Assembly (NCBI RefSeq): GCF_035083965.1
Contig: NC_089732.1
Coordinates: forward strand, 5,001 to 69,000
Direction: 5' to 3'
DNA from: Branchiostoma lanceolatum
Taxonomy: Eukaryota; Chordata; Leptocardii; Amphioxiformes; Branchiostomatidae
Length of the DNA: 64,000 nt
Each line of letters begins with the position of its first letter. Position 1 is the stretch's first letter. This document shows, piece after piece, positions 5,034-40,367 of the stretch. The translations under genes were made by a program, and so were the position numbers. The notes under the pieces are model-generated. The model ran no database searches. It was not told where the DNA came from and saw nothing but the letters and a program-made list of their open reading frames with translations.

Positions 5034-6305
5034 GAAGATGTTTGTTTGAGAGAAGCCCAGGGCCTTCAGGCTTTCCTCCATGTCTGAGTTAGAATCTAAA
5101 GATGTCTGTTTGAGAGAAGCCCGGGGCCTTCAGGCTTCCCTCCATGTCTGAGTTAGAATCTGAAGATGTCTGTTTGAGAGAAGCCCAGGGCCTTCAGGCT
5201 TTCCTCCATGTCTGAGTTAGAATCTGAAGATGTCTGTTTGAGAGAAGCCCGGGGCCTTCAGGCTTCCCTCCATGTCTGAGTTAGAATCTGAAGATGTCTG
5301 TTTGAGAGAAGCCCGGGGCCTTCAGGCTTTCCTCCATGTCTGAGTTAGAATCTGAAGATGTCTGTTTGAGAGAAGCCCAGGGCCTTCAGGCTTTCCTCCA
5401 TGTCTGAGTTAGAATCTGAAGATGTTTGTTTGAGAGAAGCCCGGGGCCTTCAGGCTTCCCTCCATGTCTGAGTTAGAATCTAAAGATGTTTGTTTGAGAG
5501 AAGCCCAGGGCCTTCAGGCTTTCCTCCATGTCTGAGTTAGAATCTGAAGATGTTTGTTTGAGAGAAGCCCGGGGCCTTCAGGCTTTCCTCCATGTCTGAG
5601 TTAGAATCTAAAGATGTTTGTTTGAGAGAAGCCCAGGGCCTTCAGGCTTTCCTCCATGTCTGAGTTAGAATCTGAAGATGTCTGTTTGAGAGAAGCCCAG
5701 GGCCTTCAGGCTTTCCTCCATGTCTGAGTTAGAATCTAAAGATGTCTGTTTGAGAGAAGCCCGGGGCCTTCAGGCTTTCCTCCATGTCTGAGTTAGAATC
5801 TGAAGATGTCTGTTTGAGAGAAGCCCGGGGCCTTCAGGCTTTCCTCCATGTCTGAGTTAGAATCTAAAGATGTCTGTTTGAGAGAAGCCCGGGGCCTTCA
5901 GGCTTTCCTCCATGTCTGAGTTAGAATCTAAAGATGTTTGTTTGAGAGAAGCCCAGGGCCTTCAGGCTTTCCTCCATGTCTGAGTTAGAATCTGAAGATG
6001 TCTGTTTGAGAGAAGCCCGGGGCCTTCAGGCTTCCCTCCATGTCTGAGTTAGAATCTGAAGATGTCTGTTTGAGAGAAGCCCAGGGCCTTCAGGCTTTCC
6101 TCAATGTCTTGGTAAGAATCTAAAGATGTCTGTTTGAGAGAAGCCCGGGGCCTTCAGGCTTTCCTCAATGTCTTGGTAAGAATCTAAAGATGTCTGTTTG
6201 AGAGAAGCCCGGGGCCTTCAGGCTTTCCTCCATGTCTGAGTTAGAATCTAAAGATGTCTGTTTGAGAGAAGCCCAGGGCCTTCAGGCTTTCCTCCATGTC
6301 TGAGT
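5034..6305 (-). repeat. 64-bp minisatellite, about 20 copies, made from the end of the CYB5RL CDS
   Basis: Exact 64-bp period (for example 5034, 5098, 5162). The unit nearest the gene (6241-6304) is the true end of the CYB5RL coding sequence, encoding residues from SDMEESLKALGF to the stop TAA at 6243-6241. The further units repeat it, stop codon included, into the 3' UTR. Because 64 is 3x21+1, the frame rotates from unit to unit. Sites alternate between CCCAGGG and CCCGGGG, and between TCTAAAG and TCTGAAG, so variant maps could be read. Confidence 0.95.
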
Positions 6306-9300
6306 TGAAGGATCGGGTTCCACAGATCAGCACTAGCACTCCACTTCCAGGGGGAGGCAGCTCAGCAGACAAAACAGCCTGGTCCACACGGCCATGGTGG
6401 ATTTCATCTCCGTATTTGGGTTTGAAATTTTTCTGATCCTCCTGAACAAAAATAGATCAACAATTAGACAAACTCATGGGTAGAAAAGGTCGATCTGAAA
6501 ACTGACACTTTGCCTTGAAGACTTTAGTTCAAATGGCTCAGCCAGATGGGAAAATAGATATGAATGCCACAGCACACAAAGACACCAGCTGAATTTGAAT
6601 GTTCGTACTTAGGCTAATGTTTCCAAAACGAATGTACCTGACTGAGGTAGTAGGACACAGAGAAGTTCCAGAAAGCCGCCAGGTTGTCCAGAACGTCTTT
6701 AAGGAGAAGGTCTTGGTACCGTCGGCAGGCGTACAGCAGCCTCACCAGCGTCTCATCCTCCTCGTTACCAAGGACACGCCTAGCAACCTGCAGCATAGGC
6801 GTGATCCCTGTTCCCGCGGCAACCATCACCACATGGCGATACTGTTGGAAAGGTCAGAGGTCAATGCAGTGACTAGTGTCAATGACATAAAGATTAGATA
6901 AATAACTCATCACTACAAACTACGGTAGGTGAAAGTTCTCCTCACCTGGTTTGCTCGGTAAGTGAAAGTTCTCCTCACCTGGTTTGCTCGGTAAGTGAAA
7001 GTTCTCCTCACCTGGTTTGCTCGGTAAGTGAAAGTTCCCCTCACCTGGTTTGCTCGGTAAGTGAAAGTTCCGAAGGGCCCTCTCCACTCCACCATATCTC
7101 CCACCTGCCAGGTGCGCACGTACCTGGACATCACACCTGTCTGATAAACCTGTCAAACACGAAAAAACATCAGTAAACAAAAAATTGCTAAGATAATATG
7201 GGAATAAACTGATGGTATAACAGCCATAAAAATTCTCATCTTCATAATTATATACAATACAGCACATTGCATTATCCAACCTTTGTATCATGCATTACAT
7301 CATCTAATCTTTCCTGCCAAAATCAATCAAGATGCATTTCCACACCTTAGCTTGATCACATGACCAGCTCAGCTTGATCACATGACCATCTCAGCTTGAT
7401 CACATGACCATCTTTGCTTGATCACATGACCAGCTCAGTTTGATCACATGACCAGTTCAGTTTGATCACATGACCAGCTCAGTTTGATCACATGACCAGC
7501 TCAGTTTGATCACATGACCAGTTCAGCTTGATCACATGACCAGCTCACCTTGATCAACACGTCGAAGTGGCCTCTGGCGTCCAGTGGGCTGATGGGAGTG
7601 TACTGTCGGGTCACTGACCTGCTGGCCACTGACCCCCTGAACAAACGACATAACAAGTCAGAGTCTGCTACTATCGGTGCCACAGTCAAATTCTCCTACT
7701 ATCAGTTCCGCAGTCAGAGCATGCTACTATCAGTACCACAGTCAGAGCCCGCTACTATCAGTACCGCAGTCAGAGCATGCTACAATCAGTACCGCAGTCA
7801 GAGCCTGCTACTATCAGTACCGCAGTCAGAGCCCGCTACTATCAGTACCACAGTCAGAGTCTGCTACTATCAGTACCACAGTCAGAGCCTGCTACAATCA
7901 GTACCGCAGTCAGAGTCTGCTACTATCAGTACCGCAGTCAGAGTCTGCTACTATCAGTACCGCAGTCAGAGTCTGCTACTATCAGTACCGCAGTCAGAGT
8001 CTGCTACAATCAGTACCGCAGTCAGAGCATGCTACAATCAGTACCGCAGTCAGAGCCTGCTACTATCAGTACCACAGTCAGATGGTGTGCTGTACCTTAA
8101 GATGATGTGCTGTGCCTTAAGATGATGTCCTGTACCTTAAGATGGTGTGTTGTTCCTTAAGATGATGTGCTGTACCTTAAGATGATGTGCTGTACCTTAA
8201 GATGATGTGCTGTACCTTAAGATGATGTGCTGTACCTTAAGATGATGTGCTGTACCTTAAGAAGGTGTTGTACCTTAAGATGATGTGCTGTACCTTAAGA
8301 AAGTGTGCTGTACCTTAAGATGATGTGCTGTACCTTAAAATGGTGTGCTGTACCTTAAGATGGTGTGCTGTACCTTAAGATGGTGTGTTGTTCCTTAAGA
8401 TGATGTGCTGTACCTTAAGATGATGTGCTGTACCTTAAGATGATGTGCTGTACCTTAAGATGATGCGCTGTACCTTAAGATGATGTGCTGTACCTTAAGA
8501 AGGTGTGTTGTACCTTAAGATTATGTGCTGTACCTTAAGAAAGTGTGCTGTACCTTAAGATGATGTGCTGTACCTTAAAATGGTGTGCTGTACCTTAAGA
8601 TGGTGTGCTGTACCTTAAGATGGTGTGCTGTACCTTAAGAAGGTGTGCTGTACCTTAAGATGGTGTGCTGTACCTTAAGATGATGTGCTGTTCCTTAAGA
8701 TGATGTGCTGTACCTTAAGATGGTGTGCTGTTCCTTAAGATGATGTGCTGTACCTTAAGATGATGTGCTGTACCTTAAGATGGTGTGTTATACCTTAAGA
8801 TGATGTGCTGTGCCTTAAGATGATGCGCTGTACCTTAAGATGATGTGCTGTACCTTAAGAAGGTGTGCTGTACCTTAAGATGATGTGCTGTACCTTAAGA
8901 AGGTGTGCTGTACCTTAAGATGATGTGCTGTACCTTAAGATGGTGTGCTGTACCTTAAGATGGTGTGCTGTACCTTAAGATGGTGTGTTGTTCCTTAAGA
9001 TGATGTGCTGTTACACTGCTGTACCTTAAGATGATGTGCTGTACCTTAAGATGATGTGCTGTACCTTAAGATGATGTGCTGTACCTTAAGATGATGTGCT
9101 GTACCTTAAGATGATGTGCTGTACCTTAAAATGGTGTGCTGTACCTTAAGATGATGTGCTGTACCTTAAGAAGGTGTGCTGTACCTTAAGATGATGTGCT
9201 GTACCTTAAGATGATGTGCTGTACCTTAAGATGATGTGCTGTACCTTAAGAAGGTGTGCTGTACCTTAAGATGATGTGCTGTACCTTAAAATGGTGTGCT

Positions 9301-11071
9301 GTACCTTAAGATGGTGTGCTGTACCTTAAGATGGTGTGTTGTTCCTTAAGATGATGTGGTGTACCTTAAGATGATGTGCTGTACCTTAAGATGGTGTGTT
9401 GTTCCTTAAGATGGTGTGTTGTACCTTAAGATTGTGTGTTGTTCCTTAAGATGATGTGCTGTACCTTAAGATGATGTGCTGTACCTTAAGATGATGTGCT
9501 GTACCTTAAGATGATGTGCTGTCCCACGGCTAACCCGAGTCGCCTGTCACCAGGAATGTGGAACCTGAACACATATGTGTCAGAGGTCGTGTCAAAGGTC
9601 AGCTTCTGGATGTTCTCTAATCTGAAGGCGGTGTACTTGTCTGGACTCAGCACAGGCCCAGCCTAAAGGCAGTCAATCATCAAATTATCAATCAACCAGT
9701 CAATCAATCAGTCAATCAAGCAATATTCTCCAAGCAGAGACTACGATCTTACGTAAGAAATCCCGGACAAAACTAACCCTCTGGATCGAAGCCTCTCCTT
9801 GGAGAATAATCAAGCAGTCAATCAGTCAATAAATCAACCAACCAATCATACAGTCTTTTTGCTCCAGGTCCGGTGTTGCGAGTGGAAGGTCTCAGAAAAT
9901 CTTCCAAGGTGTGAATTCTGTTTCAGATGTAATCAGTTTTTCTGTGTCAAAAACTTGTCTACAATAGAGATTCTGCACTGGGTAATTGCAGCCCTGATAG
10001 TAAACAGACAGTAAATGGATAATATAACTACCCTACTGTACACAACACTTCTGGTGCTGGAAATAAACATGTAAACTGCTCTCAGTGCGAGGAAATAAAC
10101 ATATAAACTGCACTCACAGTGGGAGGAAATAAACATGAAAACTGCACTCACAGTGGGAGGAAATAAACATGTAAACTGCACTCACAGTGGGAGGAAATAA
10201 ACATGTAAACTGCACTCACAGTGGGAGGAAATAAACATGTAAACTGCTCTCAGTGCGAGGAAATAAACATATAAACTGCACTCACAGTGGGAGGAAATAA
10301 ACATGTAAACTGCACTCACAGTGTGAGGAAATAAACATGCAAACTGCACTCACAGTGGGAGGAAATATACATGTAAACTGCTCTCAGTGCGAGGAAATAA
10401 ACATGTAAACTGCACTCACAGTGGGAGGAAATAAACATGTAAACTGCTCTCAGTGCGAGGAAATAAACATATAAACTGCACTCACAGTGTGAGGAAATAA
10501 ACATGCAAACTGCACTCACAGTGGGAGGAAATAAACATGCAAACTGCACTCACAGTGGGAGGAAATAAACATGTAAACTGCACTCACAGTGTGAGGAAAT
10601 AAACATGTAAACTGCACTCTCAGTGGGAGGAAATAAACATGTTAACTGCACTCACAGTGGGAGGAAATAAACATGTTAACTGCACTCACAGTGTTAGGGA
10701 ATAAACATGTAAGCTGCACTCACAGTGTGAGGATCCCTGCTCTCCTGCGCCGTGCGTTTCCCTTCCCTGAGAGAACGGTACTCCTCCTGCCACAGCCTCA
10801 TCTCCTCTGCATAGATGTCCATCACACACGGGACGCACCCGCCCCCACAGCAGTCGCTAGGCAGGGGCTTCTCAGGCTCCACCGGCCAATCACAGCCAGC
10901 TTCTGCAGTCACATGACAGTTGCTAGGAGAGACACGCCCACCTCCACAGCAGTCACTGGGCAGGGGCTTCGCAGGCTCCGGTGGCCAATCACAGCCAGCT
11001 CCTGCAGTCACATGACAGTTGCTAGGAGAAGCTTTTTGAGTGACAGCTGGAGGCAGATCTGAGTTCTCCAT
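6241..11071 (-). CDS. CYB5RL: NADH-cytochrome b5 reductase-like protein (CYB5RL), 6 coding exons
   Basis: Flavoprotein reductase of the cytochrome b5 reductase family, expected to pass electrons from NADH through FAD; the physiological acceptor of CYB5RL is not settled as far as I know. Exons in transcript order: 11071-10724, 9662-9505, 7636-7549, 7140-7045, 6841-6638, 6441-6241, joining with consistent phases to 364 residues. Exon 1 carries an N-terminal oxidoreductase-like motif (DCCGGGCVPCVMDIY), the feature that separates CYB5RL from other b5 reductases. Later exons show the FAD motif RQYTPIS, the NADH-binding GTGITPM, and a C-terminal CGTRSF. The human protein is about 315 residues; the excess here is partly an internal duplication in exon 1. 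The ATG lies exactly at an AG acceptor, so a 5' untranslated or further coding exon probably exists upstream. Four introns and the 3' UTR hold minisatellites copied from exon ends. Confidence 0.88.
6913..7078 (-). repeat. 33-bp array copying an exon end and its splice donor
   Basis: Five units at the 3' end of CYB5RL exon 7140-7045. Each unit repeats the last codons (TFTYRANQ) plus the donor CAG|GTGAGGAG, so identical donors recur every 33 bp. The length is a multiple of three, so using a later donor would add VRRTFTYRANQ blocks in frame. The last unit decays (TYRSL then stop). Confidence 0.93.
7340..7556 (-). repeat. 22-bp array seeded on the donor of CYB5RL exon 7636-7549
   Basis: About ten units, each containing TGATCAAG followed by a GTGAGC-like or CTGAGC segment, then TGGTCATG. 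The exon itself ends TTGATCAAG|GTGAGCTGGTCATG, so the first unit is the real exon/intron boundary. In the copies the donor GT is mostly mutated to CT. Confidence 0.85.
7652..8085. repeat. 28-bp minisatellite, about 15 copies
   Basis: Unit built around CAGTCAGAGTCTGCTACTAT, in the intron about 16 bp upstream (transcript sense) of the acceptor of exon 7636-7549. The 28-bp period makes all three frames open, which yields spurious proteins. I cannot show that it copies the acceptor. Confidence 0.93.
8086..9524 (-). repeat. 20-bp minisatellite, about 70 copies, seeded on the donor of CYB5RL exon 9662-9505
   Basis: Minus-strand unit GTACAGCACATCATCTTAAG. The exon ends GGACAGCACATCATCTTAAG|GTACAG, so each unit reproduces the last 14 coding bases and the junction AAG|GTACAG. 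Variants such as TTCTTAAG and CCATCTTAAG are interspersed. About 1.4 kb of intron thus presents a near-identical donor every 20 bp. Confidence 0.95.
9663..10030. other. Intron remainder with CAAT-type simple repeat
   Basis: Between CYB5RL exon 9662-9505 and the 34-bp array. It holds CAATCAATCAGT-like simple repeats near 9668-9730 and 9808-9850. Nothing else is seen. Confidence 0.6.
10040..10735 (-). repeat. 34-bp array (with 30-bp variants) seeded on the donor of CYB5RL exon 1
   Basis: Units contain, on the minus strand, CACTGTGAGTGCAGTTTACA. The exon ends CCTCACACT|GTGAGTGCAG, so the donor is copied about 20 times. A shorter 30-bp variant (CGCACTGAGAGCAG) is mixed in and lacks the GT. Confidence 0.9.
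10820..11035 (-). repeat. In-frame duplication inside CYB5RL exon 1
   Basis: About 99-102 bp are repeated twice in frame, giving two successive stretches that read SPSNCHVTA-x-AGCDWP and end in PLPSDCCGGG. Only the second, C-terminal copy continues into the complete cysteine motif with CVPCVMDIY; the first ends in GGGRV. The first copy is therefore a half-motif that lacks the second cysteine pair. Confidence 0.85.
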
Positions 11072-11598
11072 CTGAGGACACCCCCCACCCCAAAAAAGTC
11101 TTCTCAAGCTTCTTGCAGGACAAACGTCTTCTACTAATAGTAGGCCTAGGCTTTACTTCTTGAATTTAGTCTGGAAGTTTGTATATACAGGTTGATACAT
11201 CTTTGAATTTTGGAGACTAATTTTACAAATGATAGTATGGTCAGAAAGCAAGGAATGTTGCATTTGATTTTTTTTAACTCCAAAGTACACACACACACAA
11301 AAAATGCTGTCACATCAAGTTTTCTAAACTTATCAGGGTGAACTTACACAACATTCGATTTCTCATAGAATTTTGAATATCAATTGCTCCTGGAACACTT
11401 CAAATGTTTTTTGGAAGACGTTCTGATGCAAAACAGAATCCTTCAAACTCCCTGAGGGCCTCAGTTCTCGGACTGTATCTGACAAAGTAAAAAGATATAA
11501 AGTTTACTATTATAATTTCCTGAGAACACTTCCAACAGTTATCTTTTAAAAATCTAACTAGCAATATGCGAACAAGCTAACAGCCCAGTCCAGCTGAC

Positions 11599-13206
11599 TC
11601 AACAGTTGTGGGAGTTTTTGACAGGCACTGAATGCGGCTGAGATTTCTCATACGGCATCCCCAGCATCAGGCAGGTCCACCAGGAGAAGCCGTCCTCCAC
11701 AGCACACTTGGTGCCTGTTTGGTTGGGCAGGGCGGACTCACACTTTCTCTTCCTGGGGTTGTCTGCAACAGGAAAGGACAAGAGGAGTGGCTACAGCTGT
11801 CCCGTACAAGTTGTGATTCTCTTTAGTGAATTATTGTCAAATTGATGAAGAAAAATTTTACAGAGAGAGGGGAGATAGTGGTAGCAATTATTTGACAGAA
11901 AACATAAATCTCCCGAGGTTATGAGTTTGTTTGTATTGCATGACCGATAAACCGCCACATTGCGTAACACACAAGGTTTGTACTGAAGAGTACAAGCTGC
12001 ATATTTGGGGATTTATTTGATCCACTCACACCGGGAAGGACCCCTACTCTTTTCGATAAGTGTGGTGGGTTATTTTACATGCTTGGGTGAGGATCTTTTC
12101 GAACACGGGACCTCCATTCCACGTCCTGTCCGATTTGGACATCTCTATCAAAGATAGGAGCTCATCTCTACCTGATTGAAGTGAGGAAATTCTTGTTTAG
12201 TGCCTTTTCCAAAGGCACAACGTTGTGGCATGTCAGGGGATTAGAACCCTGGACCACTGGGTTCTGGGCCAAACCTGCTGTTACGCCACTAGGCCATGCC
12301 ATGAAACTTTGTGAAACTGTGTTTTGCCTTGAGACACTGATGCAAAACAAACACAAAGGACAGACTGCTGTAACCAATAAAGCAGAAGTTAGAATTCTTT
12401 TATATAATTATAATACCTTCACAAAGAGGCCAAAACATGTGAATCTTAATCACCCTGCAGTCTGCATCACCCATACCTGAACATGTGAATCTTAATCACC
12501 CTGCGGTCTGCATCTGACGGTGACCCATACCTGCGGTCTGCATCACCTATACCTGTGGTCTGCATCACCCATACCTGAACATGTGAATCTTAATCACACT
12601 GCGGCCTGCATCTGACGGTGACCCATACCTGCGGCCTGCATCACCCATACCTGCGGCCTGCATCTGACGGTGACCCATACCTGCGGCCTGCATCACCCAT
12701 ACCTGCGGTCTGCATCACCCATACCTGCGGTCTGCATCACCTATACCTGTGGTCTGCATCACCCATACCTGAGTGGCACCGTCCTGCCTGATTACTGTCT
12801 CAAATCTTCCTCTCTGGTACTCACTCTGGTACTCACCCTCTGGTACTCACTCTGGTACTCACTCTGGTACTCACCCTGGTACTCACTCTGGTACTCACTC
12901 TGGTTTACTCTGGTACTCACTCTGGTACTCACTCTGGTACTCACTCTGGTTTACTCTGGTACTCGCTCTGGTACTCACTCTGGTACTCACTCTGGTACTC
13001 ACTCTGGTTCACCCTGGTACTCACTCTGGTACTCACCCTGGTACTCACTCTGGTTTACTCTGGTACTCACTCTGGTACTCACCCTGGTACTCACTCTGGT
13101 ACTCACTCTGGTTTACTCTGGTACTCACTCTGGTTCACGCTGGTATTCACTCTGATTCACTCTGGTACTCACTGGTTTGTTCGCACCTTCCGCTGCTGTC
13201 AGCCAT
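11599..13206 (-). CDS. Tentative small gene of unknown function, 2-3 exons
   Basis: I do not recognise this protein. A first exon (13206-13173) starts at an ATG, encodes MADSSGRCEQT and ends in a strong donor CA|GTGAGT. A terminal exon (11762-11599) follows a good acceptor (CCTGTTGCAG) and runs to TGA; it is basic at its start (NPRKRKCES) and contains SWWTCLMLGMPYEKS. The two join in frame to 65 residues. A middle exon near 12817-12775 (open for RFETVIRQDGATQ) is suggested because the flanking arrays look seeded on its edges, but I could not make all phases agree. Alternatively these are upstream exons of CYB5RL, which the stop codon argues against. The start lies 566 bp from the DCAF11 start, divergent. 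Confidence 0.35.
12000..12307 (-). mobile_element. tRNA-derived SINE
   Basis: On the minus strand from about 12307: an A-box-like TGGCCTAGTGG, then a B-box-like GGTTCTAATCC about 45 bp later, then CTGACATGCC and a body with TTGTGCCTTTGG. This is the internal Pol III promoter layout of tRNA-related SINEs. The distal part (12030-12130) has the GTGGGTT...CGGGACC body motif seen again near 36385-36440, where a headless copy may sit. Confidence 0.72.
12455..12775 (-). repeat. 22-bp degenerate array with repeated CAG|GTATGGGT junctions
   Basis: Minus-strand units of the type GATGCAGACCGCAGGTATGG with longer interspersed units. Each contains a donor-like CAG|GTATGG. The unit nearest 12775 continues from a short open segment ending GCCACTCAG|GTATGG, the candidate middle exon. 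Confidence 0.75.
12816..13172 (-). repeat. 12-bp array seeded on a first-exon donor
   Basis: About 28 units of GTGAGTACCAGA (minus strand), with occasional 6-bp insertions. The array begins directly at the donor of the putative first exon (CAAACCA|GTGAGTACC). Every unit contains a consensus GTGAGT donor. Confidence 0.93.
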
Positions 13207-13772: not shown

Positions 13773-15254
13773 ATGTCAGAAGAACAGGATGAGCCAATTT
13801 GGGGTTTTGACCTGGAAGACTGGAGCTCCGAGTTCGACTCCGCTTCTGGCTCGGATGGGAGTGAGTTTGACCTGGAGGATCCCGGCAACTTGGACTGGGC
13901 GAGTTTCCTGGAGGAGCCGGGTCTGTCGCTGCGGCCGCAGGTGTGCGACACGTCCCGCCTGCAGGACAGCAGCTTCCGCCAGGTGGCGCTGCGCCGGCTG
14001 GGGAGAGTGGGACACCGGCACGGCGACGTCACGGGCAGGACCGTCCCGCAGCTGCTGCTCCGGCGGGAGCAGGGCCTGTGTCAGCGGAGCCCCGGCTTCT
14101 CCCCGGGGCATCGGGCCTCCGTCGGCTCCAGGTTCGTCCCCAACGCGCCCTACCTCCAGGCCAAGTACGGCTACAAGGCCTTCTGCGGACAGTACTCGCG
14201 CGACGGGAACGTCTTCCTGACGGCCTGCCAGGACCAGCGGATCCGCGTGTACGACACGCGCCGCGGCGGCTTCCGCCTGAAGAGGACGGTCCAGGCGCCC
14301 AACATCGAGTGGAGCATCCTGGACACGGCGCTGAGCTCGGACGGGCGCTACGTGGTGTACTCCGGCTGGGCCGACAGCATCTACGTCTGCGAGGTGCAGA
14401 AGAAGGAGGGCAGCGTGCACCAGCTGCCGTTTTCCCACGACGGCTTCGCCTCGTGCGTCTTCTCGCTCACGTTCTCGCACGACGACAGCGAGATCATGGG
14501 CGCTGCTAACGACGGGTGTCTGTACGTGTTCGACCGGCGCCGCCAGGAGAGGACGCTCTGCATCCACAGCCACAGCAACGACGCCAACGCCGTGACGTTC
14601 GCGGACGCGTCGTCGCAGATCCTGTTCTCGGGGGGCGACGACGGGCTGCTGAAGGTGTGGGACCGGCGCATGCTGCGCGAGGAGAACCCGCGGGAGGTCG
14701 GCATCCTGCTCGGCCACTTCGACGGCATCACGCACATCCACTCCCGCGGCGACAGCCGCTTCCTCATCTCCAACTCCAAGGACCAGACCATCAAGCTCTG
14801 GGACATCCGCAAACTCTCACCCCCCGCCAGCGTGAAGCCCTCCCTCGGCAGGCTGCGCGGCCTGCACCGCTGGGACTACCGCTGGCAGCGGACGCCCTCC
14901 GACCGCCTCACCGCGCAGCGCCTGCCCGGCGACACGGCCGTCATGACGTACGCGGGGCACGTGGTGCTGCGGACGCTCATCAGGTGCTACTTCTCGCCGG
15001 ACTTCACCACGGGCCAGCGGTTCATCTACAGCGGCAGCGCCACGGGCGACATCGTGGTGTACGACGTGCTGACGGGGGCGGTCGCGGCCAGGCTGAGGGG
15101 GCACAGGTCGTGCGTGCGCGACGTCTCGTGGCACCCGTTCGCGCCTCGGATTCTCAGCGTGTCCTGGGACTGCACCGTGCGCAGGTGGGAGTGGGACGAG
15201 CACGACGCGTCGCCCGTCACAAAGGGCGTCACAAGGGGCGACAACACGGACTGA
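13773..15254 (+). CDS. DCAF11: DDB1- and CUL4-associated factor 11 (WD-repeat protein 23), intronless
   Basis: Substrate receptor of the CUL4-DDB1 ubiquitin ligase; its nematode homologue restrains the SKN-1/NRF2 stress response. A single uninterrupted frame of 493 residues, against about 546 in human. The N-terminus is acidic (FDLEDW, SDGSEFDLEDPG). WD-repeat landmarks follow: YDTRRGGF (about 150), ANDGCLYVFDRR, SSQILFSGGDDGLLKVWD, SNSKDQTIKLWDIRK (about 340), then WDYRWQ, LIRCYFSP, and near the C-terminus CVRDVSWHPF. The vertebrate gene has many introns, so an intronless copy among intron-rich neighbours suggests a functional retrocopy. Codon use is extremely GC-rich at third positions, unlike its neighbours. 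No frameshift or internal stop is present. Confidence 0.93.
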   Translation: MSEEQDEPIWGFDLEDWSSEFDSASGSDGSEFDLEDPGNLDWASFLEEPGLSLRPQVCDTSRLQDSSFRQVALRRLGRVGHRHGDVTGRTVPQLLLRREQGLCQRSPGFSPGHRASVGSRFVPNAPYLQAKYGYKAFCGQYSRDGNVFLTACQDQRIRVYDTRRGGFRLKRTVQAPNIEWSILDTALSSDGRYVVYSGWADSIYVCEVQKKEGSVHQLPFSHDGFASCVFSLTFSHDDSEIMGAANDGCLYVFDRRRQERTLCIHSHSNDANAVTFADASSQILFSGGDDGLLKVWDRRMLREENPREVGILLGHFDGITHIHSRGDSRFLISNSKDQTIKLWDIRKLSPPASVKPSLGRLRGLHRWDYRWQRTPSDRLTAQRLPGDTAVMTYAGHVVLRTLIRCYFSPDFTTGQRFIYSGSATGDIVVYDVLTGAVAARLRGHRSCVRDVSWHPFAPRILSVSWDCTVRRWEWDEHDASPVTKGVTRGDNTD

Positions 15255-15342
15255 TGTCCTGGAACTGCACCGTGGGAGTGGGGGTACGACGAGGGGGCAT
15301 TCCCGTCGCCGGTCACAAAGGCGGACAACACGCACTGATGGC
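15160..15342 (+). repeat. Tandem duplication of the DCAF11 CDS end into its 3' UTR
   Basis: The last coding stretch (GTGTCCTGGGACTGCACC through GACAACACGGACTGATG) is followed at once by a diverged copy (ATGTCCTGGAACTGCACC through GACAACACGCACTGATG). The stop codon region is duplicated along with it. Inside copy 1 a further 12-bp repeat (TCACAAAGGGCG) has expanded the C-terminus. Confidence 0.85.
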
Positions 15343-15422
15343 ACCAGTAAACGAACAAATATGGACGACGACGAGAAGTGCTGATGCCTGACTGAACTAC
15401 AGACAGTAAAACAAGCCACACG

Positions 15423-15640: not shown

Positions 15641-15757
15641 TGATGTTCAGGGATTTTTTACGCGAGCCTGCACATAGTAGAAAACATCAGAGACTTCATG
15701 TTTAAGCTGGTGCCATTCTAATTTGGGTTGCAGTGTGTGCTGTGTATACATGTATAC

Positions 15758-18939: not shown

Positions 18940-28145
<9,206 letters not shown>

Positions 28146-28556
28146 GTTGAATAATATTATGGGATAGCAAAGATGACCCGGATGTTATTTACATGTTTAT
28201 CAGGTTGTTACGCCTGCTGTGATTGGATGGCTTCTCGGTGTGCTGAATTTTTGGTGTCTTCCACCGACTATATGAAATACAACTTTTCTTCTTATCTGCT
28301 TCTGTTTGGCTCTAAATAGTTTGCATAGCAAAATGTAAAACGTTCACTGTAAAAAGTTGCACTGTTCTATCACAACAGCAAGAAACCCAATTGACATCGG
28401 TAGATTGAACTGACCAATGAGAGCTTAGTTTACCTGCCTAACTATTGACCCCAGCAGTTAATTTATGCGGGTGCTCATAGCAACATCAACATTAGCTTTC
28501 TGGACTTTTGAGCGATTTTGGGGAGACTTCTGTGGCCATTTCCAGAGTTTTCCAGC
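28146..28556. promoter_or_regulatory. Probable bidirectional promoter of MIER and DNAI4
   Basis: 411 bp separate the divergent start codons. No TATA box is obvious. The interval is not notably GC-rich; CCAAT-type sequences occur (TGACCAATGAGAG near 28409; ATTGG near 28223). Shared promoter function is inferred from the head-to-head geometry. Confidence 0.6.
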
Positions 28557-31500: not shown

Positions 31501-34500
31501 AGACGCGGCGTGAGGAAGTGAGAGGTTCTGAGGGAGGATAAGTTTGTTTGTTTGTGAAGGTGTGAAGACGCGGCGTGAGGAAGTGAGAGGTTCTGAGGGA
31601 GGATAAGTTTGTTTGTTTGTGAAGGTGTGAAGACGCGGCGTGAGGAAGTGAAGGAGGTTCTGACGGAGGCAGATCTGGATCTCTCAGTGCCGATCCGGCT
31701 GACGGAGAGCGACACGATCTGGATCCTGGATCTGGTCGGGACGTGCGTAGCCAACGACAGCGAGAACGCCGACGGGATCCGGGCCAGGAATGAGAAGTAC
31801 AAGGAGGTGAGATCTCTTAGATCTGGCATCACAACTCTTAGATCTGGGATCACAACTCTTAGATCAGGGATCACAACTCTTAGATCTGGCATCACAACTC
31901 TTAGATCTGGGATCACAACTCTTAGATCTGGGATCACAACTCTTAGATCTGGGATCACAACTCTTAGATCTGGCATCACACATGTTATTTGATATATTTC
32001 CAAGCTGATGTTATTTCATATGTTTCCCAGCTGATATTTGATATATGTTCCCCAGCTGATATTATTTGATATTTTTCCCAGCTGATATTTGATATGTTTC
32101 CCAGCTGATATTTGATATGTTCCCCAGCTGATATTTGATGTTTCCCAGCTGATATTTGATATGTTCCCCAGCTGATGTAATTTGATATGTTCCCCAGCTG
32201 TGTAAGAACCGTGTGGGGAACGACCGGTACATGGAGAGGGGCATGCAGACCTTCAACGATGCGCCAAAGAACAAGGAGGTGCAGGCGGAGAAAGTGGAGC
32301 TGATCGTAAGTAACTTTCACTGCTGTAAGTAACTTTCACTGCTGTAAGTAACTTTCACTGCTGTAAGTAACTTTCACTGCTGTAAGTAACTTTCACTGCT
32401 GTAACTACACCTGTCTGTGCAGGCAGTGCAGGTAATATTGTACAGGACACAGGCGTCCATGCCTCGGTATGGTTTGTGTGCTGTTGTTGAATTATTTGCA
32501 TGCTATTCTTGTATGGGAAGTAGGAGACAACAACTAACAGGACCACTCGCAAACAACTGAGCTTTATCAAACGAGAGAACCGGATTGGCTGTTATATGTT
32601 CAAACAGCCGGTACCAGATAACGTCTAGTAGTACGTACTATAGAATCGCGTTCGAGATTACGTCTATGTACTATAGAGTCCTACACTTGAATGCACTGTT
32701 CCTGTACTGTTGTTTGTTCTGTTTCAGGACACGGGCATCAATGCCTCCGAGTGGGACATGCATGACACTTATCAGGACCTGGCAGCTAAAGACAAGGGTA
32801 AGAGTTTCCAAGTTGAAAATAACAAAGTAAAAAATGATCTTTTGTTGCACAACTTCCGCATGTGAAATTCCTGGACCCTGTTTGTGTATCAATGTGAAGG
32901 TTTGATGCCGTAACTCTCTCCTCTGCCCCTCCCCTGCAGAGAAGTCGGGAGAGGCGGATGCGGACCAGGACCTGATCAGCCGACCCACCAGCAAGAAGGC
33001 CGACCTGGAGGAGACTTCTGTGGAGGGGTCGATGCGGCAAGGGTCGGCTCTGTCAGGGCAAAGTGGGAGGGGTGAGTTTTATAAGGGTCGGCTTTGTCGG
33101 GGCACAGTGGGAGGGGTAAGTTTTATCGTGAGAATGTGACCTATGAAATTTATCCAACCATGTTCCGATAAACCATGGGACCACTAGCCAACCACCACCT
33201 GATTCCCAGCTCACATGACCTGTAATGTTCCAGAGAGCCGTGCCAGCCTGATGGGGTCCAGCATGCAGGTGTCGCAGTTCGAGATTGCGGAGACGCCCGC
33301 GCCGCCAGCGCTGCCAGAGAAGGACGGAACCGTTGATGGCGTCATCGATGATGCCGACCATCCCCTCCTCAAGGTCAGGCTCCTCAAGGTCGTGTAGGGG
33401 GACCTTGGGGCAGTGATGCTTTTATGCATGCCATGTTTTTCTTGTGCTGATTTTGTGCTGTTTGTAGGCATTCCTTGTTTTGTGCTGATTCTGTGTTTTT
33501 GTAAATCCGCTGGCCTTGTGCTTCAGACGGAGAGCCTGCAGCACGACTTGTTTGTCATGGAGAGGGTCGTGGTGCAGAACATCTTCCAGCCCAAACAGGC
33601 AGCGTACAGAGGCATGGACGAGCTCACAGGTCAGTACAAACCCACAGGTCAGTACTAACCCACAGGTCAGTACAAACCCACAGGTCAGTGCAAACCCACA
33701 GGTCAGTACAAACTCACAGGTCAGTACAAACCCACAGGTCAGTACAAACCCACAGGTCAGTACAAACCCACAGGTCAGTACAAACCCACAGGTCAGTACA
33801 AACCCACAGGTCAGTGCAAACCCACAGGTCAGTACAAACTCACAGGTCAGTACAAACCCACAGGTCAGTACAAACCCACTGGTCAGTACAAACCCACAGG
33901 TCAGTACAAACCCACAGGTCAGTACAAACCCACAGGTCAGTACAAACTCACAGCCTACAGAGGCATGGACGAGCTCACAGGTCAGTACAAACCCACAGGT
34001 CAGTACAAACTCACAGCCTACAGAGGCATGGACGAACTCACAGGTCAGTACAAACCCACAGGTCAGTACAAACCCACAGGTCAGTACAAACTCATAGCCT
34101 ACAGAGGCATGGACGAACTCACAGGTCAGTACAAACCCACAGGTCAGTACAAACCCACAGGTCATTACAAACCCACAGGTCAGTACAAACCCACAGGTCA
34201 GTACAAACCCACAGGTCAGTACAAACTCACAGCCTACAGAGGCATGGACGAACTCACAGGTCAGTACAAACCCACAGGTCAGTACAAACCCACAGGTCAG
34301 TACAAACTCATAGCCTACAGAGGCATGGACGAACTCACAGGTCAGTACAAACCCACAGGTCAGTACAAACCCACAGGTCAGTACAAACCCACAGGTCAGT
34401 ACAAACCCACAGGTCAGAACAAACCCACAGGTCAGTACAAACTCACAGGTCAGTACAAACCCACAGGTCAGTACAAACCCACAGGTCAGTACAAACCCAC

Positions 34501-37500
34501 AGGTCAGTACAAACCCACAGGTCAGTACAAACCCACAGGTCAGTACAAACCCACAGGTCAGTACAAACTGATGAAACTGCTTCTAAAACCTTGCTGTAAC
34601 TAGACTATGGCCAAATTTGCAGAGCAGTACAAACTCACAGGTCAGCAAAACTGTCTCTCATTGATATATAAAACTCTACTGTAAGTAACCACACCATAGA
34701 CAAAGTCAGGTCATGAACATGCTCTTTGTTTTAACTTAATGTTCTGTTCTGGGATTCATGGCAACAGTAATGTGCTGACTGTTGTCTAGACAGTCCAGTG
34801 TGTCTTCCTGCCCCGTTGGATGATGATTGTGATGATTAGTCATGGTGATGATGATGTGTGATGATGGTAAGTGATTGTGATGTTTAGTGCTGATGCTGAT
34901 GCTGTTCTGTACACCCCCCACCCCCCAGACGTGGACCGTGAGGTTCCGGACGAGCCCCCTCCCACGGCCGGCTCCATGTCCATCACACAGATGGGCCCCA
35001 ACCTGGAGCGGCTCTGGATCTACCACTGCGAGCTGACGGACGGCAGGAACGTCAGCTGCCTGTCCTGGAACAAGGCTAACCCGGTCAGCAAACAAACAAA
35101 CAGACAAACATAGAAACCCAGTAGGTGCAATAGAACATGTATGTCCTGGTCAGTGGACTAACCTAACTGTACCCTACCTTGAATGTTTTTTTTTAAATAT
35201 TTATTGTTATAGAAATGCTAAGAGGAAAAAGACAGTAGTTAAGGAAGAAGAGCATGCAGCATAATCTCACAGTCTTTAAAGTGAGAGGAATGTTCAGCAT
35301 AATCTCACAGTCTTTAAAGTGAGAGGAATGTTCAGCATAATCTCACAGTCTTTAAAGTGAGAGGAATGTTCAGCATAATCTCACAGTCTTTAAAGTGAGA
35401 GGAATGTTCAGCATAATCTCACAGTCTTTAAAGTGAGAGGAATGTTCAGCATAATCTCACAGTCTTTAAAGTGAGAGGAATGTTCAGCATAATCTCACAG
35501 TCTTTAAAGTGAGAGGAATGTTCAGCATAATCTCACAGTCTTTAAAGTGAGAGGAATGTTCAGCATAATCTCACAGTCTTTAAAGTGAGAGGAATGTTCA
35601 GCATAATCTCACAGTCTTTAAAGTGAGAGGAATGTTCAGCATAATCTCACAGTCTTTAAAGTGAGAGGGATGCTCAGCATAATCTCACAGTCTTTAAAGT
35701 GAGAGGAATGTTCAGCATAATCTCACAGTCTTTAAAGTGGGAGGAATGTTCAGCATAATCTCACAGTCTTTAAAGTGAGAGGAATGTTCAGTATAATCTC
35801 ACAGTCTTTAAAGTGGGAGGAATGTTCAGTATAATCTCACAGTCTTTAAAGTGAGAGGATGTTCAGCAGAATCTCATTGTTTTTTTATATTTGCAACCAG
35901 GACCTGATCGCCGTGGGTTACGGCCAGTTTGGGTTCAACGACCAGAAAGGCGGGCTGGCCTGCTGCTGGTCTCTCAAGAACCCCAAGGTGAGACCATGTA
36001 CACAATGATTATACCAATGCGCAGTATGAACCCCAATGTGAGACCGCTTGTAAGCTAAGTTTCCCAGTATGAGTAAAGGAAACTGTCTGCAGTTGTAGTG
36101 TTGTTGTTTGTATGAGTAAAGGACTCGTATCTGCAGTTGTAGTGTTTTTGTTTGTATGAGTAAAGGAGGCGTCTGCAGTTGTAGTGTTGTTGTTTGTATG
36201 AGTAAAGGACTCGTATCTACAGTTGTAGTGTTGTTGTTTGTATGAGTAAAGGACTCGTATCTGCAGTTGTAGTGTTGTTGTTTGTATGAGTAAAGGAGGC
36301 GTCTGCAGTTCCAGTGTTTTTGTTGCATGATAATTACCAGACCCGACTGGTAGGTTTATTTCTCCACTTACTCTTAGTGATAAGTTTTGTGGGTTCTCAT
36401 ATAAACATGCTCAAGGTGTAACACGGGACCTGGGGCTTTATATCCCGTCTGAGTTAACATTCCTTATAGAAGCTATATTATACTAATTTTCACCATTTAA
36501 GTGAGGAAACAGGTTCCTAGTGCCTCCCTACTTGCTGCTGAATGTTAAGTGAAGAAACAGGTTCCTTGTGCCTCCCTACTTGCTGCTAAATGTTAAGTGA
36601 AGAAACAGGTTCCTAGTGCCTCCCTACTTGCTGCTAAATGTTAAGTGAAGAAACAGGTTCCTAGTGCCTCCCTACTTGCTGCTGAATGTTAAGTGAAGAA
36701 ACAGGTTCCTAGTGCCTCCCTACTTGCTGCTGAATGTTAAGTGAAGAAACAGGTTCCTAGTGCCTCCCTACTTGCTGCTAAATGTTAAGTGAAGAAACAG
36801 GTTCCTAGTGCCTCCCTACTTGCTGCTAAATGTTTCCTGCTGATGTTGCTGTTTCAGTACCCAGAGAGAGTGTACCACTGTGCCTCGGGGGTGGTCAGCA
36901 TGGACTTCTCCTACCAGAACCCCAGTCTGCTGGCCGTGAGTAGATTTGGTGCTTCTAGTGGAACAATTTGTGCACTCAGGAATATCAGCTCAATCCTGGG
37001 AAACTTGCACCTTGAAATTCAACCAAAGTGCACTGGTGTAATCTGACGAGAAGTCAACAGTCCCAAATTAATGGCACTTCCTGTTGAAGGAAACATGAAA
37101 TTCCCAGTTGTTTGAATCAAAGCAAGTGTGAACCTGCAGTTCCTCCCATGTCTGCTAGGTGGGGCTGTACGACGGAACTGTTGCCATCTACAATGTGAGG
37201 AGCCAGGAGGACTCACCTGTGCTGGACAGCTTGTAAGTTTGTCTCACCTTTCTCACCTGTGCTCACCTGTGCTGGACAGCTTGTAAGTTTGTCTCACCTT
37301 TCTCACCTGTACTCATGCTCATGGCCTCACCTTTCCTCACCAGCGCTGGGCGACTTGTAAGTTTGCTTCACCTGTGCTCACCTGTACTAGACAGCTTGTA
37401 AGCTTGCCTCACCTGTCCTCACCTGTCCTCACCTGTGCTAGACAGCTTGTAAGCTTGCCTCACCTGTCCTCACATGTCCTCACCTGTGCTAGACAGCTTG

Positions 37501-40367
37501 TAAGTATGTTCACATGAGCTGCACACTCGTCCTCAGCTTGCCATCAATCTGCATGCATTAATGACTCTCCCCTGCTTCCCTGCCAGCTGCATGCATTAAT
37601 GACTCTCCCCTGCTTTCTCCTGCTTTCCGCAGTCAGTCCGGACAGGACCACGTCAAAAACAGGTAGGTTCTTTTCTGCCCTCTGCACCCCCGGTATGATG
37701 TAGACTAGGTCAGGTTTCATTTATTGTTTTTGCCTTTTTTCATTAGTAGCTTTTCTAATACTTTGCTCATGAAGTTGTGTCCCCCCCCCCTGCGGTGAAG
37801 TACACTTTACCCCTAGTCCTCTTGTGTTTTAACAGCATAGTGAACATACATACTTACATACACTTACCTATATGTGCTGTGTGTAACGTGTCTGTCTGTC
37901 TGTAGTGAGAACGCAGGGAAACACTCGGCGCCGGTGTGGCAGCTCAAGTGGGTGGAGCGAGACCGCGGTGCCCATGGCGATGAGCGCGGCGAGGTTCTGG
38001 TGTCGGTGTCGGCTGACGGCAGGGTCGTGCAGTGGTCCATCCGGAAGGGACTGGAGGCTTCAGGTACAGCAGCTGTGCTTGATGAATTGTTATCTTTTCT
38101 GCGTCTCTGATGACTGCTAATGACTCCTTCCTTCAATACTGCTGAAGGCTCCTTCCTGTTAGACTACTGAAGGCTCCTTTCTGTGTTCCTTAAGACTCCT
38201 GAAGGCTCCTTCCTGTAAGACTACTGAAGGCTCCCTGCTGTATTTCAGACCTGATGAAGCTTAAGCGCACGGCTGTGAAGCAGACGGGAGCGGGGAAGGG
38301 AAAGGAAGGAAGCAAGAAGAGCGAAGGTCTCATCTTCAGATTCGCCCCCGGACTCTGCTTCGACTTCAGTGCCAAGGACCCCAACATGTGAGTCCCAAGC
38401 CTGCACACTTTGTCCTTTTGCTCTGAGTAGTTTGGAATAAGGAATGGGGTCTTGTGTTTCCATGGAAACATTCCTACATAACCTACCCACAATGCTACCA
38501 TGTTCAACCTACCCATAATGCCCCATTACTTCCTGTGTGCAGCTACCTGGCAGGGACGGAGGAGGGCCACATCCACAAGTGTTCCTGTTCCTACAACGAG
38601 CAGTACCTGGACTCATATGCAGGGCACACGGTAAGGGCAGTACCTGCACTCATATGCAGGGCACACGGTAAGGGCAGTACCTGGACTCCTATGCAGGGCA
38701 CACGGTAAGGGCAGTACCTGGACTCCTATGCAGGGCACACGGTAAGGGCAGTACCTGGACTCATATGCAGGGCACACGGTAAGGGCAGTACCTGGACTCA
38801 TATGCAGGGCACACGGTAAGGGCAGTACCTGGACTCATATGCAGGGCACACGATAAGGGCAGTACCTGGACTCATATGCAGGGCACACGGTAAGGGCAGT
38901 ACCTGGACTCATATGCAGGGCACACGGTAAGGGCAGTACCTGGACTCATATGCAGGGCACACGGTAAGGGCAGTACCTGGACTCATATGCAGGGCACACG
39001 GTAAGGGCAGTACCTGGACTCATATGCAGGGCACATGGTAAGGGCTGTTTCTGTCCTGCTTATGTCCTGTTGCTGTCCTGTTTATTTATTTAACTCTACA
39101 AGATCATCATGATTGATTGCTGTTTGTGCACGGCTGATTCTGTCCTGTTTCTGTCCTGTTCCGTTTAGGGTCCAGTCTACAAGATCACGTGGTCGCCGTT
39201 TGCGCCCGACATCTTCCTGAGCTGCAGCGCCGATTGGAGCGTCCGACTCTGGTCACATGACATGACATCACCAGCCATTAACTTCTTCTCCTCCACGGTG
39301 AGAAGCCAATAACCTCAGAAAGTTTCAGCCATCATTTTTTTTGGATTTCTTCAATCCTAAAACAAAATGATAACTGTAAATTGTATAAGACCTATTCCTT
39401 CCATTCTCCACATGACAAACTGTTGCTGTCATATTACCAGTAAGTGAAGAAATCGCCATGTTGCACTTTGTCCCCACCCGCAGCGCTCGGTGTACGATGT
39501 GTGCTGGTCGCCCTCATCATCCACTGTGTTCGGCTGCGTCAACGAAGGAGCCGTGGAGATCTGGGACCTGTCCGTCAGCACGTGAGCTTCTTAGCTTTTT
39601 CTAGGAGTCTTGAAGTAAGAATAAAGGCAGCTACAGGCGGGGTCTTTGACCCTATCAGCAGCCTTGTGTGAAAAAGACCTGTAAATCATGGCTCTGTGGT
39701 ACCGGAAGGTACAGAATTGTGCCACCTGTGTAATAAGTACTAACCCTGTCTGTCTGTCTGTCTGATTGCCGCAGGTTGGATCCCATCATCGTGAACGTGC
39801 CGAACCCCGGCATCAAGCTGTCCTGCATCTCCTTCACTCTCAATTCCGATGTAAGTACCACAGACAAACAAACAAACAAACGATTCTCACTCTGACCTCT
39901 GAAATATGTACCACACACACTGTGGAATGGAACAGCATTTAACTTTTTCTGTACCCCCCTGCAGTGCGTATTGGTAGGTGCCAGTGATGGACAAGTCACT
40001 GTCTATAAGCTGAAGTGCATGCAGCCGACGCCCGACAACCAGGTCAGCACATCAGAACTGCATTGTGTTTTGAAATTTTATCTCAGACCAAGGAAAAGCC
40101 TCCTTGCTCAGACCAAGATGTGCTGTAACAGCCAAGTCAGAAGATGTGTTGAGAAAAGGATATCTATGATAATTTACACTAATGCCATGCACAAATGCAG
40201 GTTACTGAAGGGAACTTTTTTTCATTGATCCACTGTGAGTTGATTAGTTTGATAAAATGTGTTGTTTATTTCAGGGCGGCGCCCTGAGGGACATTATCCA
40301 GGCCACCATGGCCTCCCAGCTGCAGAGCACGGGCAAGGCAGGCAAGAAGAAGGGCAGCGGGGAGTGA
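28557..40367 (+). CDS. DNAI4: Dynein axonemal intermediate chain 4 (WDR78), 23 coding exons
   Basis: WD-repeat intermediate chain implicated in assembly of axonemal inner-arm dynein f, needed for ciliary motility. Exons: 28557-28603, 29593-29887, 30623-30702, 31142-31254, 31625-31806, 32198-32305, 32728-32797, 32940-33072, 33234-33373, 33527-33629, 34929-35083, 35901-35987, 36858-36935, 37159-37232, 37633-37662, 37906-38063, 38249-38387, 38543-38630, 39169-39297, 39484-39581, 39775-39850, 39965-40042, 40275-40367. About 850 residues, as in human (848). Landmarks: VVVLDDAGNDVTPQPL, NDRYMERGMQTFNDAPKNK, QHDLFVMERVVVQNIFQPK, LERLWIYHCELTDG, VGYGQFGFNDQKGGLACCW, VWQLKWVERDRGAHGD, IYLAGTEEGHIHKCSCSYNE, FLSCSADWSVRLW, YDVCWSPSSSTVFG. 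The tail is lysine-rich (GKAGKKKGSGE). The only phase mismatch is between exons 8 and 9: one base too many near 33060-33072. Confidence 0.93.
28917..29019. mobile_element. 103-bp foldback (hairpin) element in DNAI4 intron 1
   Basis: 49-bp arms with one mismatch and a 5-bp loop. Ends AGCCTGG/CCAGGCT and total length 103 bp are identical to the element at 25875-25977, although the arm interiors differ. ATAATTAT flanks both sides. Confidence 0.85.
29500..29550 (+). repeat. Displaced copy of part of DNAI4 exon 2
   Basis: CACACCAAGAGCTCCATGATG at 29525-29545 is identical to an internal piece of exon 2 (about 29634-29654), about 110 bp upstream. It is a short exon-derived duplication placed before the acceptor. 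Confidence 0.8.
29888..30600 (+). repeat. Two adjoining degenerate arrays after DNAI4 exon 2
   Basis: 29888-30215: units around TCCTATCAGAGGGCTTCTTA and ACAACAGCTT, 45-60 bp, six copies, starting 13 bp past the donor. 30215-30590: about 46-bp decayed units containing CCAATCAGA and TTGTTACAGTAGT, evidently an older relative of the first array. Confidence 0.82.
31223..31312 (+). repeat. End of DNAI4 exon 4 with donor, two extra copies
   Basis: The exon end CCTTGCCCCTGGGCTGTCCA|GTAAGTCA is followed by CCTTGCCCCTGGGCTGTCCA|GTAGGTCA and a third, decayed CCTTGACCCCGGGC. The unit is about 33 bp. Confidence 0.9.
31405..31640 (+). repeat. 65-bp array: acceptor and start of DNAI4 exon 5
   Basis: Three upstream units, each containing the acceptor-like TTTGTTTGTGAAG|GTGTGAAG and the exon start CGGCGTGAGGAAGTGA, precede the real one at 31625. 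The real exon differs by continuing into AAGGAGGTTCTGACGGAGG, which the copies read as GAGGTTCTGAGGGAGG. Confidence 0.9.
31807..31982 (+). repeat. 21-bp array starting at the donor of DNAI4 exon 5
   Basis: Eight copies of ATCACAACTCTTAGATCTGG(G/C), beginning about 8 bp after the donor. The donor itself is not copied. Confidence 0.92.
32000..32197 (+). repeat. Array of copied acceptors before DNAI4 exon 6
   Basis: About eight units of 20-26 bp with TTTGATATGTTCCCCAGCTG. The real acceptor is exactly TTTGATATGTTCCCCAG|CTGTG, so each unit carries the polypyrimidine-CAG junction and the first exon bases CTG. Confidence 0.92.
32306..32405 (+). repeat. 19-bp array of the donor of DNAI4 exon 6
   Basis: Five to six copies of GTAAGTAACTTTCACTGCT, the first of which is the actual intron start. 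Exon 6 is thus flanked by copied acceptors on one side and copied donors on the other. Confidence 0.93.
32430..32470 (+). repeat. Decayed copy of the acceptor/start of DNAI4 exon 7
   Basis: ACAGGACACAGGCGTCCATG resembles the real TCAGGACACGGGCATCAATG at 32724-32743. It is a single diverged copy about 285 bp upstream. Confidence 0.6.
33040..33122 (+). repeat. Duplicated end of DNAI4 exon 8 with donor
   Basis: GGGTCGGCTCTGTCAGGGCA through GGGAGGGGTGAG is repeated once as GGGTCGGCTTTGTCGGGGCA through GGGAGGGGTAAG, about 48 bp apart. The second copy lacks one A present in the first, which bears on the reading frame. Confidence 0.88.
33600..34595 (+). repeat. 18-bp array, about 45 copies, seeded on the donor of DNAI4 exon 10, with interspersed exon copies
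   Basis: Unit GTCAGTACAAACCCACAG. The exon ends GAGCTCACAG|GTCAGTACAA, so every unit has the junction CACAG|GTCAGT. Five times a longer exon piece (GCCTACAGAGGCATGGACGA) is included, showing at least two amplification events. The 18-bp period leaves long open frames (GQYKPT repeats), but the exon's own frame meets a stop at 33656-33658, in the second unit. Confidence 0.95.
35215..35870. repeat. 38-bp minisatellite, about 16 copies
   Basis: Units around CAGCATAATCTCACAGTCTT and TAAAGTGAGAGGAATGTT in the intron before DNAI4 exon 12. Very homogeneous; only the last few units vary. No exon sequence is copied. Confidence 0.95.
36070..36315. repeat. 42-47-bp minisatellite, five copies
   Basis: Units around GTATGAGTAAAGGACTCGTA and CTGCAGTTGTAGTGTTGTTG, downstream of DNAI4 exon 12. 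Confidence 0.9.
36490..36835. repeat. 48-bp minisatellite, seven copies
   Basis: Units around TTAAGTGAAGAAACAGGTTC and CTAGTGCCTCCCTACTTGCT, ending about 20 bp before the acceptor of DNAI4 exon 13. The preceding 36380-36450 shows a SINE-like body motif (GTGGGTTCTC...CGGGACC). Confidence 0.92.
37205..37505 (+). repeat. Copied end of DNAI4 exon 14 with donor, five extra copies
   Basis: The exon ends CACCTGTGCTGGACAGCTT|GTAAGTTT. The segment GCT(G/A)GACAGCTT|GTAAG recurs about five times, spaced 45-60 bp by CTCACCTGT-rich filler. Each copy has an intact GTAAG. Confidence 0.9.
38100..38245. repeat. Pyrimidine-rich degenerate repeat before DNAI4 exon 17
   Basis: Four to five copies of CTGAAGGCTCCTTCCTGT-like units, 25-35 bp, ending at the real acceptor (GGCTCCCTGCTGTATTTCAG). 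It may be acceptor-derived, but the CAG is not repeated. Confidence 0.75.
38594..39045 (+). repeat. 37-bp array: 30 bp of DNAI4 exon 18 end plus donor, about 11 copies
   Basis: Each unit is CAGTACCTGGACTCATATGC + AGGGCACACG followed by GTAAGGG. The exon part encodes QYLDSYAGHT. All copies keep CACACG|GTAAGGG except one (CACACG|ATAAGGG, 38847-38853) and the last (CACATG|GTAAGGG). As 37 is 3x12+1, use of a later donor would usually shift the frame. Confidence 0.95.

What the first reader, a model, noticed from the sequence alone, without database searches (positions are those of the whole stretch)
5034..39045. Minisatellites that are copies of exon edges and splice sites across neighbouring genes
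In CYB5RL, MIER, DNAI4 and the putative small gene, tandem arrays or duplications beside exons are built from the exon edge plus its splice site. Donor-type cases: 7045, 7549, 9505, 10724, 13173, 19857, 23757, 24001, 31254, 32305, 33072, 33629, 37232 and 38630. Acceptor-type cases: 20699, 24867, 31625, 32198 and probably 19322. Coding-end cases: 6241 and 15254. Chance placement of arrays in introns would not match the exon boundary to the base this often. It implies a process that starts tandem duplication at exon/intron boundaries, or selection favouring arrays that copy working splice sites. I recall a report of amphioxus Adh intron minisatellites called 'mirages' that copy exon-intron boundaries; that is memory and should be checked. 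If right, this window shows the effect is pervasive and includes acceptors and stop codons.
Basis: partly seen in the sequence, partly recalled or inferred. Interest (0 to 1): 0.93.

Follow-up and report, generated by a model that had tools for sequence, protein, structure and literature searches.

The report
Minisatellites copying exon edges
In this stretch of an animal chromosome, probably from a lancelet, about half of the intron DNA is tandem repeats and a number of repeats are built from the edge of the neighbouring exon with its splice site, a known oddity called a mirage that is unusually dense here and favours the upstream (donor) splice site.

Summary
The observation mostly holds. I built exon models from reading frame and homology rather than from the repeats (39 introns, 78 junctions). 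Five do not: 13173, 23757, 32305, 32198, 19322. One was missed (35987). In all, 12 of 39 donors, 3 clear acceptors of 39, 2 of 5 stop codons and 0 of 5 start codons are copied.

The chance argument needs correcting. Arrays fill 50% of intron sequence, and junctions lie inside repeats less often than random intron positions. What stands out is donor-side array ends: 17 of 25 lie within -35..+19 of the donor, against 8.4-11.8 expected (P 0.0001-0.012; threshold chosen after seeing the data). Acceptors show no excess. Exon copying alone is marginal (P 0.009-0.35).

These are "mirages", already described in amphioxus (PMC3087553, PMC3902484). Most likely, duplications straddling a donor survive because the exon-side copy still works, while duplicated acceptors are mostly purged. 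Using a distal donor copy would break the reading frame in 137 of 141 cases, so splicing must choose by position.

The parts
5025..6306 (-). Coding-end array at CYB5RL: 64-bp unit, 20 copies, made of the last 66 coding bases region including TAA, extending into the 3' side
   Evidence: TRF and exon overlap; unit; stop-spanning copy score 117
6923..7070 (-). Donor mirage at 7045 (CYB5RL): 33-bp unit, 26 exon nt + 7 intron nt, 4.5 copies
   Evidence: all 3 extra donors as strong as the real one
7349..7556 (-). Donor-edge array at 7549 (CYB5RL): 22-bp unit, 8 exon nt; copies have lost the GT
8080..9522 (-). Donor mirage at 9505 (CYB5RL): 20-bp unit, 73 copies, 18 exon nt in the array
   Evidence: 60 of 70 scored copies keep GT
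10059..10733 (-). Donor mirage at 10724 (CYB5RL): 34-bp unit, 20 copies, 10 exon nt
12812..13173 (-). Array abutting the donor of the putative small gene (12-bp unit, 31 copies); 1 exon nt only, not a true exon-edge copy
15162..15340 (+). DCAF11 coding end (95 bp with stop) and one downstream gapped duplicate (84 bp)
19690..19890 (-). Degenerate, spaced copy of the MIER donor edge at 19857 (33 exon nt + 9 intron nt, offset 96)
20663..20836 (-). MIER acceptor edge at 20699 and its copy 120 bp into the intron
23936..24019 (-). Donor mirage at 24001 (MIER): about 33-bp unit, 2.8 copies, 19 exon nt
24844..24993 (-). Acceptor mirage at 24867 (MIER): 41-bp unit, 3.7 copies, 24 exon nt
31230..31310 (+). 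Donor mirage at 31254 (DNAI4): 31-bp unit, 2.6 copies, 25 exon nt
31404..31669 (+). Acceptor mirage at 31625 (DNAI4): 65-bp unit, 4.1 copies, 45 exon nt by TRF
32306..32404 (+). Array starting exactly at the donor GT of 32305 (19-bp unit, 5.2 copies), no exon bases
33039..33126 (+). Donor mirage at 33071 (DNAI4): 44-bp unit, 2 copies, 33 exon nt
33625..34568 (+). Donor mirage at 33629 (DNAI4): 18-bp unit, 50 copies, with longer copies of up to 30 exon nt embedded
35976..36045 (+).
37211..37504 (+). Donor mirage at 37232 (DNAI4): about 50-bp unit, two TRF blocks, 22 exon nt
38600..39045 (+). Donor mirage at 38630 (DNAI4): 37-bp unit, 12 copies, 31 exon nt

Best explanation
These are mirage minisatellites. 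Short tandem duplications (units mostly 18-65 bp) arise often in the introns of these genes and then grow by repeat expansion. Some began with a unit that straddled an exon edge. When the edge is a splice donor, or a stop codon, the duplication does little harm, because the outermost, exon-side copy still serves and everything beyond it becomes intron or 3' untranslated sequence. Duplications that straddle an acceptor put extra, equally strong acceptors upstream of the real one and are mostly purged; those inside coding sequence are purged unless in frame. Splicing must then pick the exon-proximal copy by position, not by strength. Shown: the copies, their side, their equal strength and the donor-side clustering. 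Inferred: the duplication mechanism, the purging and the choice by position.
For: Exon edges fixed independently of the repeats. Junction-spanning copies: 12 of 39 donors and 4 of 39 acceptors by the loose criterion, one acceptor hit (32727) weak; 10 and 3 by the strict one; 2 of 5 stop codons, 0 of 5 starts. Repeat density rises from exon into intron without a peak at the junction, as expected for a filter on scattered duplications. Exon-interior positions are rarely repeated (38 of 600). Unit lengths show no preference for multiples of three, so the copies are not being read as protein. Of 141 intact donor copies, using 63 would shift the frame and 74 would add a stop; 4 would keep the frame. 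Most copies in the arrays at 7045, 9505, 10724, 33629 and 38630 score as high as the real donor, so strength cannot choose.
Against: A pure filter on randomly placed arrays predicts 8.4-11.8 donor-side ends within -35..+19; 17 of 25 are seen, so something also favours donors. The donor/acceptor contrast is modest: Fisher P 0.047 for 12 vs 4 of 39, paired sign test P 0.054. No RNA data, no second haplotype and no other individual were available, so purging and site choice are untested.
Confidence: 0.6

Rival explanations
1. Duplication is started at splice donors by a process tied to transcription or splicing (for example an R-loop or a repair event near the exon/intron border), so arrays nucleate there.
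For: Two unannotated stretches (1-5024 and 40368-47490, no gene modelled there) hold no array while introns are 50% array.
Against: Window and cut-off chosen after seeing the data; threshold-free tests are weaker (KS P 0.0032-0.11 when exon overlap is allowed). Exon overlap alone is not clearly above the random null (9 of 25; P 0.009-0.35). Arrays away from junctions show no donor motif. Array-poor stretches may be young repeats rather than untranscribed DNA.
Confidence: 0.22
2. Arrays saturate these introns and meet the exon edges by chance; nothing is special about the boundary.
For: Arrays cover 50% of intron sequence; junctions are inside repeats less often than random intron positions (donors 10, acceptors 3, null about 13 each of 39); acceptors match the exon-interior background (3 of 39, P 0.45).
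Against: Donor-side clustering and donor copies above exon background (10 of 39 vs 38 of 600, P 1e-4).
Confidence: 0.12
3. Selection keeps arrays of spare splice donors as a backup.
For: In several arrays most copies keep a donor as strong as the real one.
Against: Copied donors are not weaker than uncopied ones (9.2 vs 8.2, P 0.11); using a distal copy breaks the frame in 137 of 141 cases; the 7549 array has lost GT in all 9 scored copies.
Confidence: 0.03
4. The pattern is an assembly artefact, or exons grew out of the arrays rather than the reverse.
For: Tandem arrays are prone to misassembly; no reads were available.
Against: Copies differ from each other (85-99% match), which collapse or read-duplication would not give. 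Exon sequences at 7045, 7549, 9505 and 38630 align without a gap to distant homologues, so the exon is the older sequence.
Confidence: 0.03

Closest known systems
Mirage minisatellites of amphioxus (Adh3: Canestro et al. 2002, cited in PMC3087553, not held in the library; globins BflGb6 and BflGb9: PMC3087553, passages read)
   Same: Tandem units spanning an exon/intron boundary, at 5' and 3' boundaries, many carrying AG/GT signals; units of 10-72 bp (Adh3) to about 150-160 bp (globins).
   Different: Here 15 clear junctions in three neighbouring genes, far more donors than acceptors, and two cases that copy a stop codon. Splicing and copy-number instability, both reported there, were not testable here.
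Splice-site-spanning repeats of lancelet PGBD5, with troponin C cited there (PMC3902484, one passage read)
   Different: Described as imperfect and few in copy number; here up to 73 copies.
Intron gain by tandem duplication of AG/GT proto-splice sites (as discussed in PMC3087553)
   Same: Duplication that copies splice signals.
   Different: Here existing introns are enlarged; no newly created intron was identified or looked for systematically.

Membership tests
Amphioxus mirage minisatellites | Tandem units that span an exon/intron boundary | tested here: met
   12 of 39 donors and 3 clear acceptors of 39
Amphioxus mirage minisatellites | Units of roughly 10-160 bp | tested here: met
   TRF periods at junction-spanning arrays 18-65 bp, apart from a 134-bp row that TRF also reads as 34 bp
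Amphioxus mirage minisatellites | Many but not all copies carry splice signals | tested here: met
   e.g. 60 of 70 at 9505, 44 of 44 at 33629, 0 of 9 at 7549
Amphioxus mirage minisatellites | Normal splicing is kept | not testable with these tools
   No RNA data; the frame argument only predicts it
Amphioxus mirage minisatellites | Length instability between alleles or in the soma | not testable with these tools
   One haplotype only; no genome held
Amphioxus mirage minisatellites | Host is a cephalochordate | tested here: inconclusive
   Animal proteins and TTAGGG-type telomere repeats; species not identified, homologue search switched off
Intron gain by tandem duplication | A new intron created inside an ancestral exon | not tested
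   No intron-position comparison with other species was made

The most novel reading that the evidence does not exclude
Splice donors are preferred starting points of tandem duplication in this genome: a process linked to transcription or splicing duplicates DNA around the 5' splice site, so introns grow outward from their donors, and untranscribed DNA is largely spared.
Probability: 0.2. Interest if true: 0.85.

Novelty: new member of a known kind. Interest (0 to 1): 0.5.

Why it matters
The window holds natural competition tests for splice-site choice: rows of up to about 60 near-identical donors at fixed spacing beside a real exon, and three acceptor rows in which equally strong sites lie upstream of the real one. 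Existing RNA-seq from the right species could show which copy is used and how accurately. If donor-side clustering holds genome-wide, it would point to a duplication process tied to the exon/intron border and a route by which introns lengthen. The stop-codon versions show that the same tolerance rule applies to any edge whose outermost copy does the work.

Tried and rejected
Paper searches listed no genome-wide survey of mirages among the rows shown; the listings are capped and most subscription journals are not in the library.

Rejected: junctions as hot spots at position level (the reverse is true); donor motifs as seeds inside intron-interior arrays (16 arrays, sense vs antisense P 0.41); backup selection for weak donors; outward growth with a similarity gradient from the exon (correlations -0.37 to 0.22 in the arrays with more than 4 copies, no consistent sign); translation of the arrays (frames broken; unit lengths not in threes). 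GC content of the last 30 exon bases does not differ (0.57 both).

Rows dropped: TRF rows with period under 10 or score under 60 and rows overlapping a better one by half were removed before the array tests (138 rows before filtering, 37 intronic arrays kept). Score cut-offs 100 and 200 gave the same direction. A two-copy 15-bp duplication at donor 33373 (9 exon nt) is visible in the sequence but fell under the score limit and is not counted.

Full report
What the window is. The first 165 bases and 2516-2869 are telomere-type repeats, so this is a chromosome end. Five genes were modelled: CYB5RL (minus, 6 exons), a putative small gene (minus, 2 exons), a DCAF11-like single exon (plus), MIER (minus, 12 exons) and DNAI4 (plus, 23 exons). 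Each gives an uninterrupted protein. DNAI4, CYB5RL, MIER and DCAF11 have homologues of known structure or Pfam domains; the small gene has reading frame only. The first donor of DNAI4 was chosen by reading frame and is uncertain. All 39 introns in the models are GT-AG.

Are exon edges copied? Yes. Under a loose rule (at least 6 exon bases, 2 intron bases, score at least 13, within 600 bp) 12 of 39 donors and 4 of 39 acceptors have a copy, one acceptor (32727) weakly. Background under this rule: 17 of 250 exon-interior, 24 of 250 intergenic, 154 of 250 intron-interior and 71 of 250 positions in 47.7-63.2 kb. Under a strict rule (score at least 25) it is 10 and 3 of 39, against 38 of 600, 47 of 600 and 316 of 600. 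Donors exceed the exon background (P 1e-4) and acceptors do not (P 0.45). Two of five stop codons and none of five starts are copied.

Case list. 35987 was missed.

Is the boundary special? At the level of positions, no: junctions lie in repeats less often than random positions of the same introns (donors 10 vs 13.0 expected, acceptors 3 vs 12.9), and repeat density climbs smoothly from exon to intron. Arrays cover 11,084 of 22,047 intron bases, in 25 of 39 introns. At the level of array ends, donors are: outermost donor-side ends number 11 at -35..-1, 6 at 0..19, 1 at 20-59, 3 at 60-119, 2 at 120-200 and 2 beyond; acceptor-side ends are 1, 2, 3, 5, 6, 5 and 3 for -60..-36, -35..-1, 0..19, 20-59, 60-119, 120-200 and beyond. 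Random placement gives 8.4-11.8 donor ends up to +19, depending on how much exon overlap and acceptor exclusion is allowed; 17 of 25 are seen, P 0.0001-0.012. Against this: the cut-off was set after seeing the list; exon overlap of at least 6 nt alone is 9 of 25 against 4.1-7.9 (P 0.009-0.35); threshold-free KS tests give P 0.0032-0.11 when overlap is allowed; the paired donor/acceptor comparison gives P about 0.05.

What the copies can do. In the arrays at 7045, 9505, 10724, 33629 and 38630 most copies score as high as the real donor. Using a distal copy would shift the frame in 63, add a stop in 74 and keep the frame in 4 of 141 cases, over 11 of the 12 donor junctions; the 12th, 7549, has no copy with GT. 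At the three acceptors, 6 copies give 4 frame shifts, 1 stop and 1 kept frame. So the genes can work only if the exon-proximal site is used; that is a prediction, not a measurement.

Why more donors than acceptors. My inference, from general knowledge of splicing: an extra donor lies behind the real one, whereas extra acceptors lie in front of the real one and would be met first after the branch point. Purging of acceptor duplications would follow. The data fit but do not prove this.

Known or new. PMC3087553 (passages) reports minisatellite-like duplications of intron/exon boundaries in two amphioxus globin genes, cites Adh3 and other loci, says both boundaries are affected and calls the mechanism unclear. 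PMC3902484 (passage) adds PGBD5 and cites troponin C. The huntingtin paper PMC2206037 (passages) mentions tandem repeats in that locus but no boundary copies in what I saw. The kind is therefore known; this window adds dense new members, a count with controls, a donor bias and stop-codon versions. I found no print report of the last two in searches, which cover open-licence papers only and show capped lists.

Noticed in passing
1-5024 and 40368-47490: No array of score 60 or more (period at least 10) in 12.1 kb without a modelled gene, while introns are 50% array.
   Followed up: partly
41277-43366: Longer repeated blocks of about 750-bp spacing, up to 97% alike, in the array-free stretch.
   Followed up: no
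25874-25978 and 28915-29021: Two near-perfect hairpins with 50-51-nt arms and 5-nt loops, both beginning TAGCCTGG-like and ending CCAGGCTA-like, resembling foldback mobile elements.
   Followed up: no
10838-11029: A 99-bp in-frame duplication inside CYB5RL exon 1, in or next to the oxidoreductase-like N-terminal domain.
   Followed up: no
33360-33395: Two-copy 15-bp duplication across the DNAI4 donor at 33373, below the score limit used for counting.
   Followed up: partly
7349-7556: All 9 scored copies of the donor edge at 7549 lack the GT although the exon-side copy keeps it.
   Followed up: partly
28146-28556: MIER and DNAI4 are head to head with 411 bp between their start codons, free of arrays.
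   Followed up: no
47491-47570: A plus-strand ORF start that looks like a signal-peptide first exon; the 16 kb after it is 28% array.
   Followed up: no
11599-13206: Putative two-exon gene for a 65-residue protein without a Pfam or NCBIfam match.
   Followed up: partly
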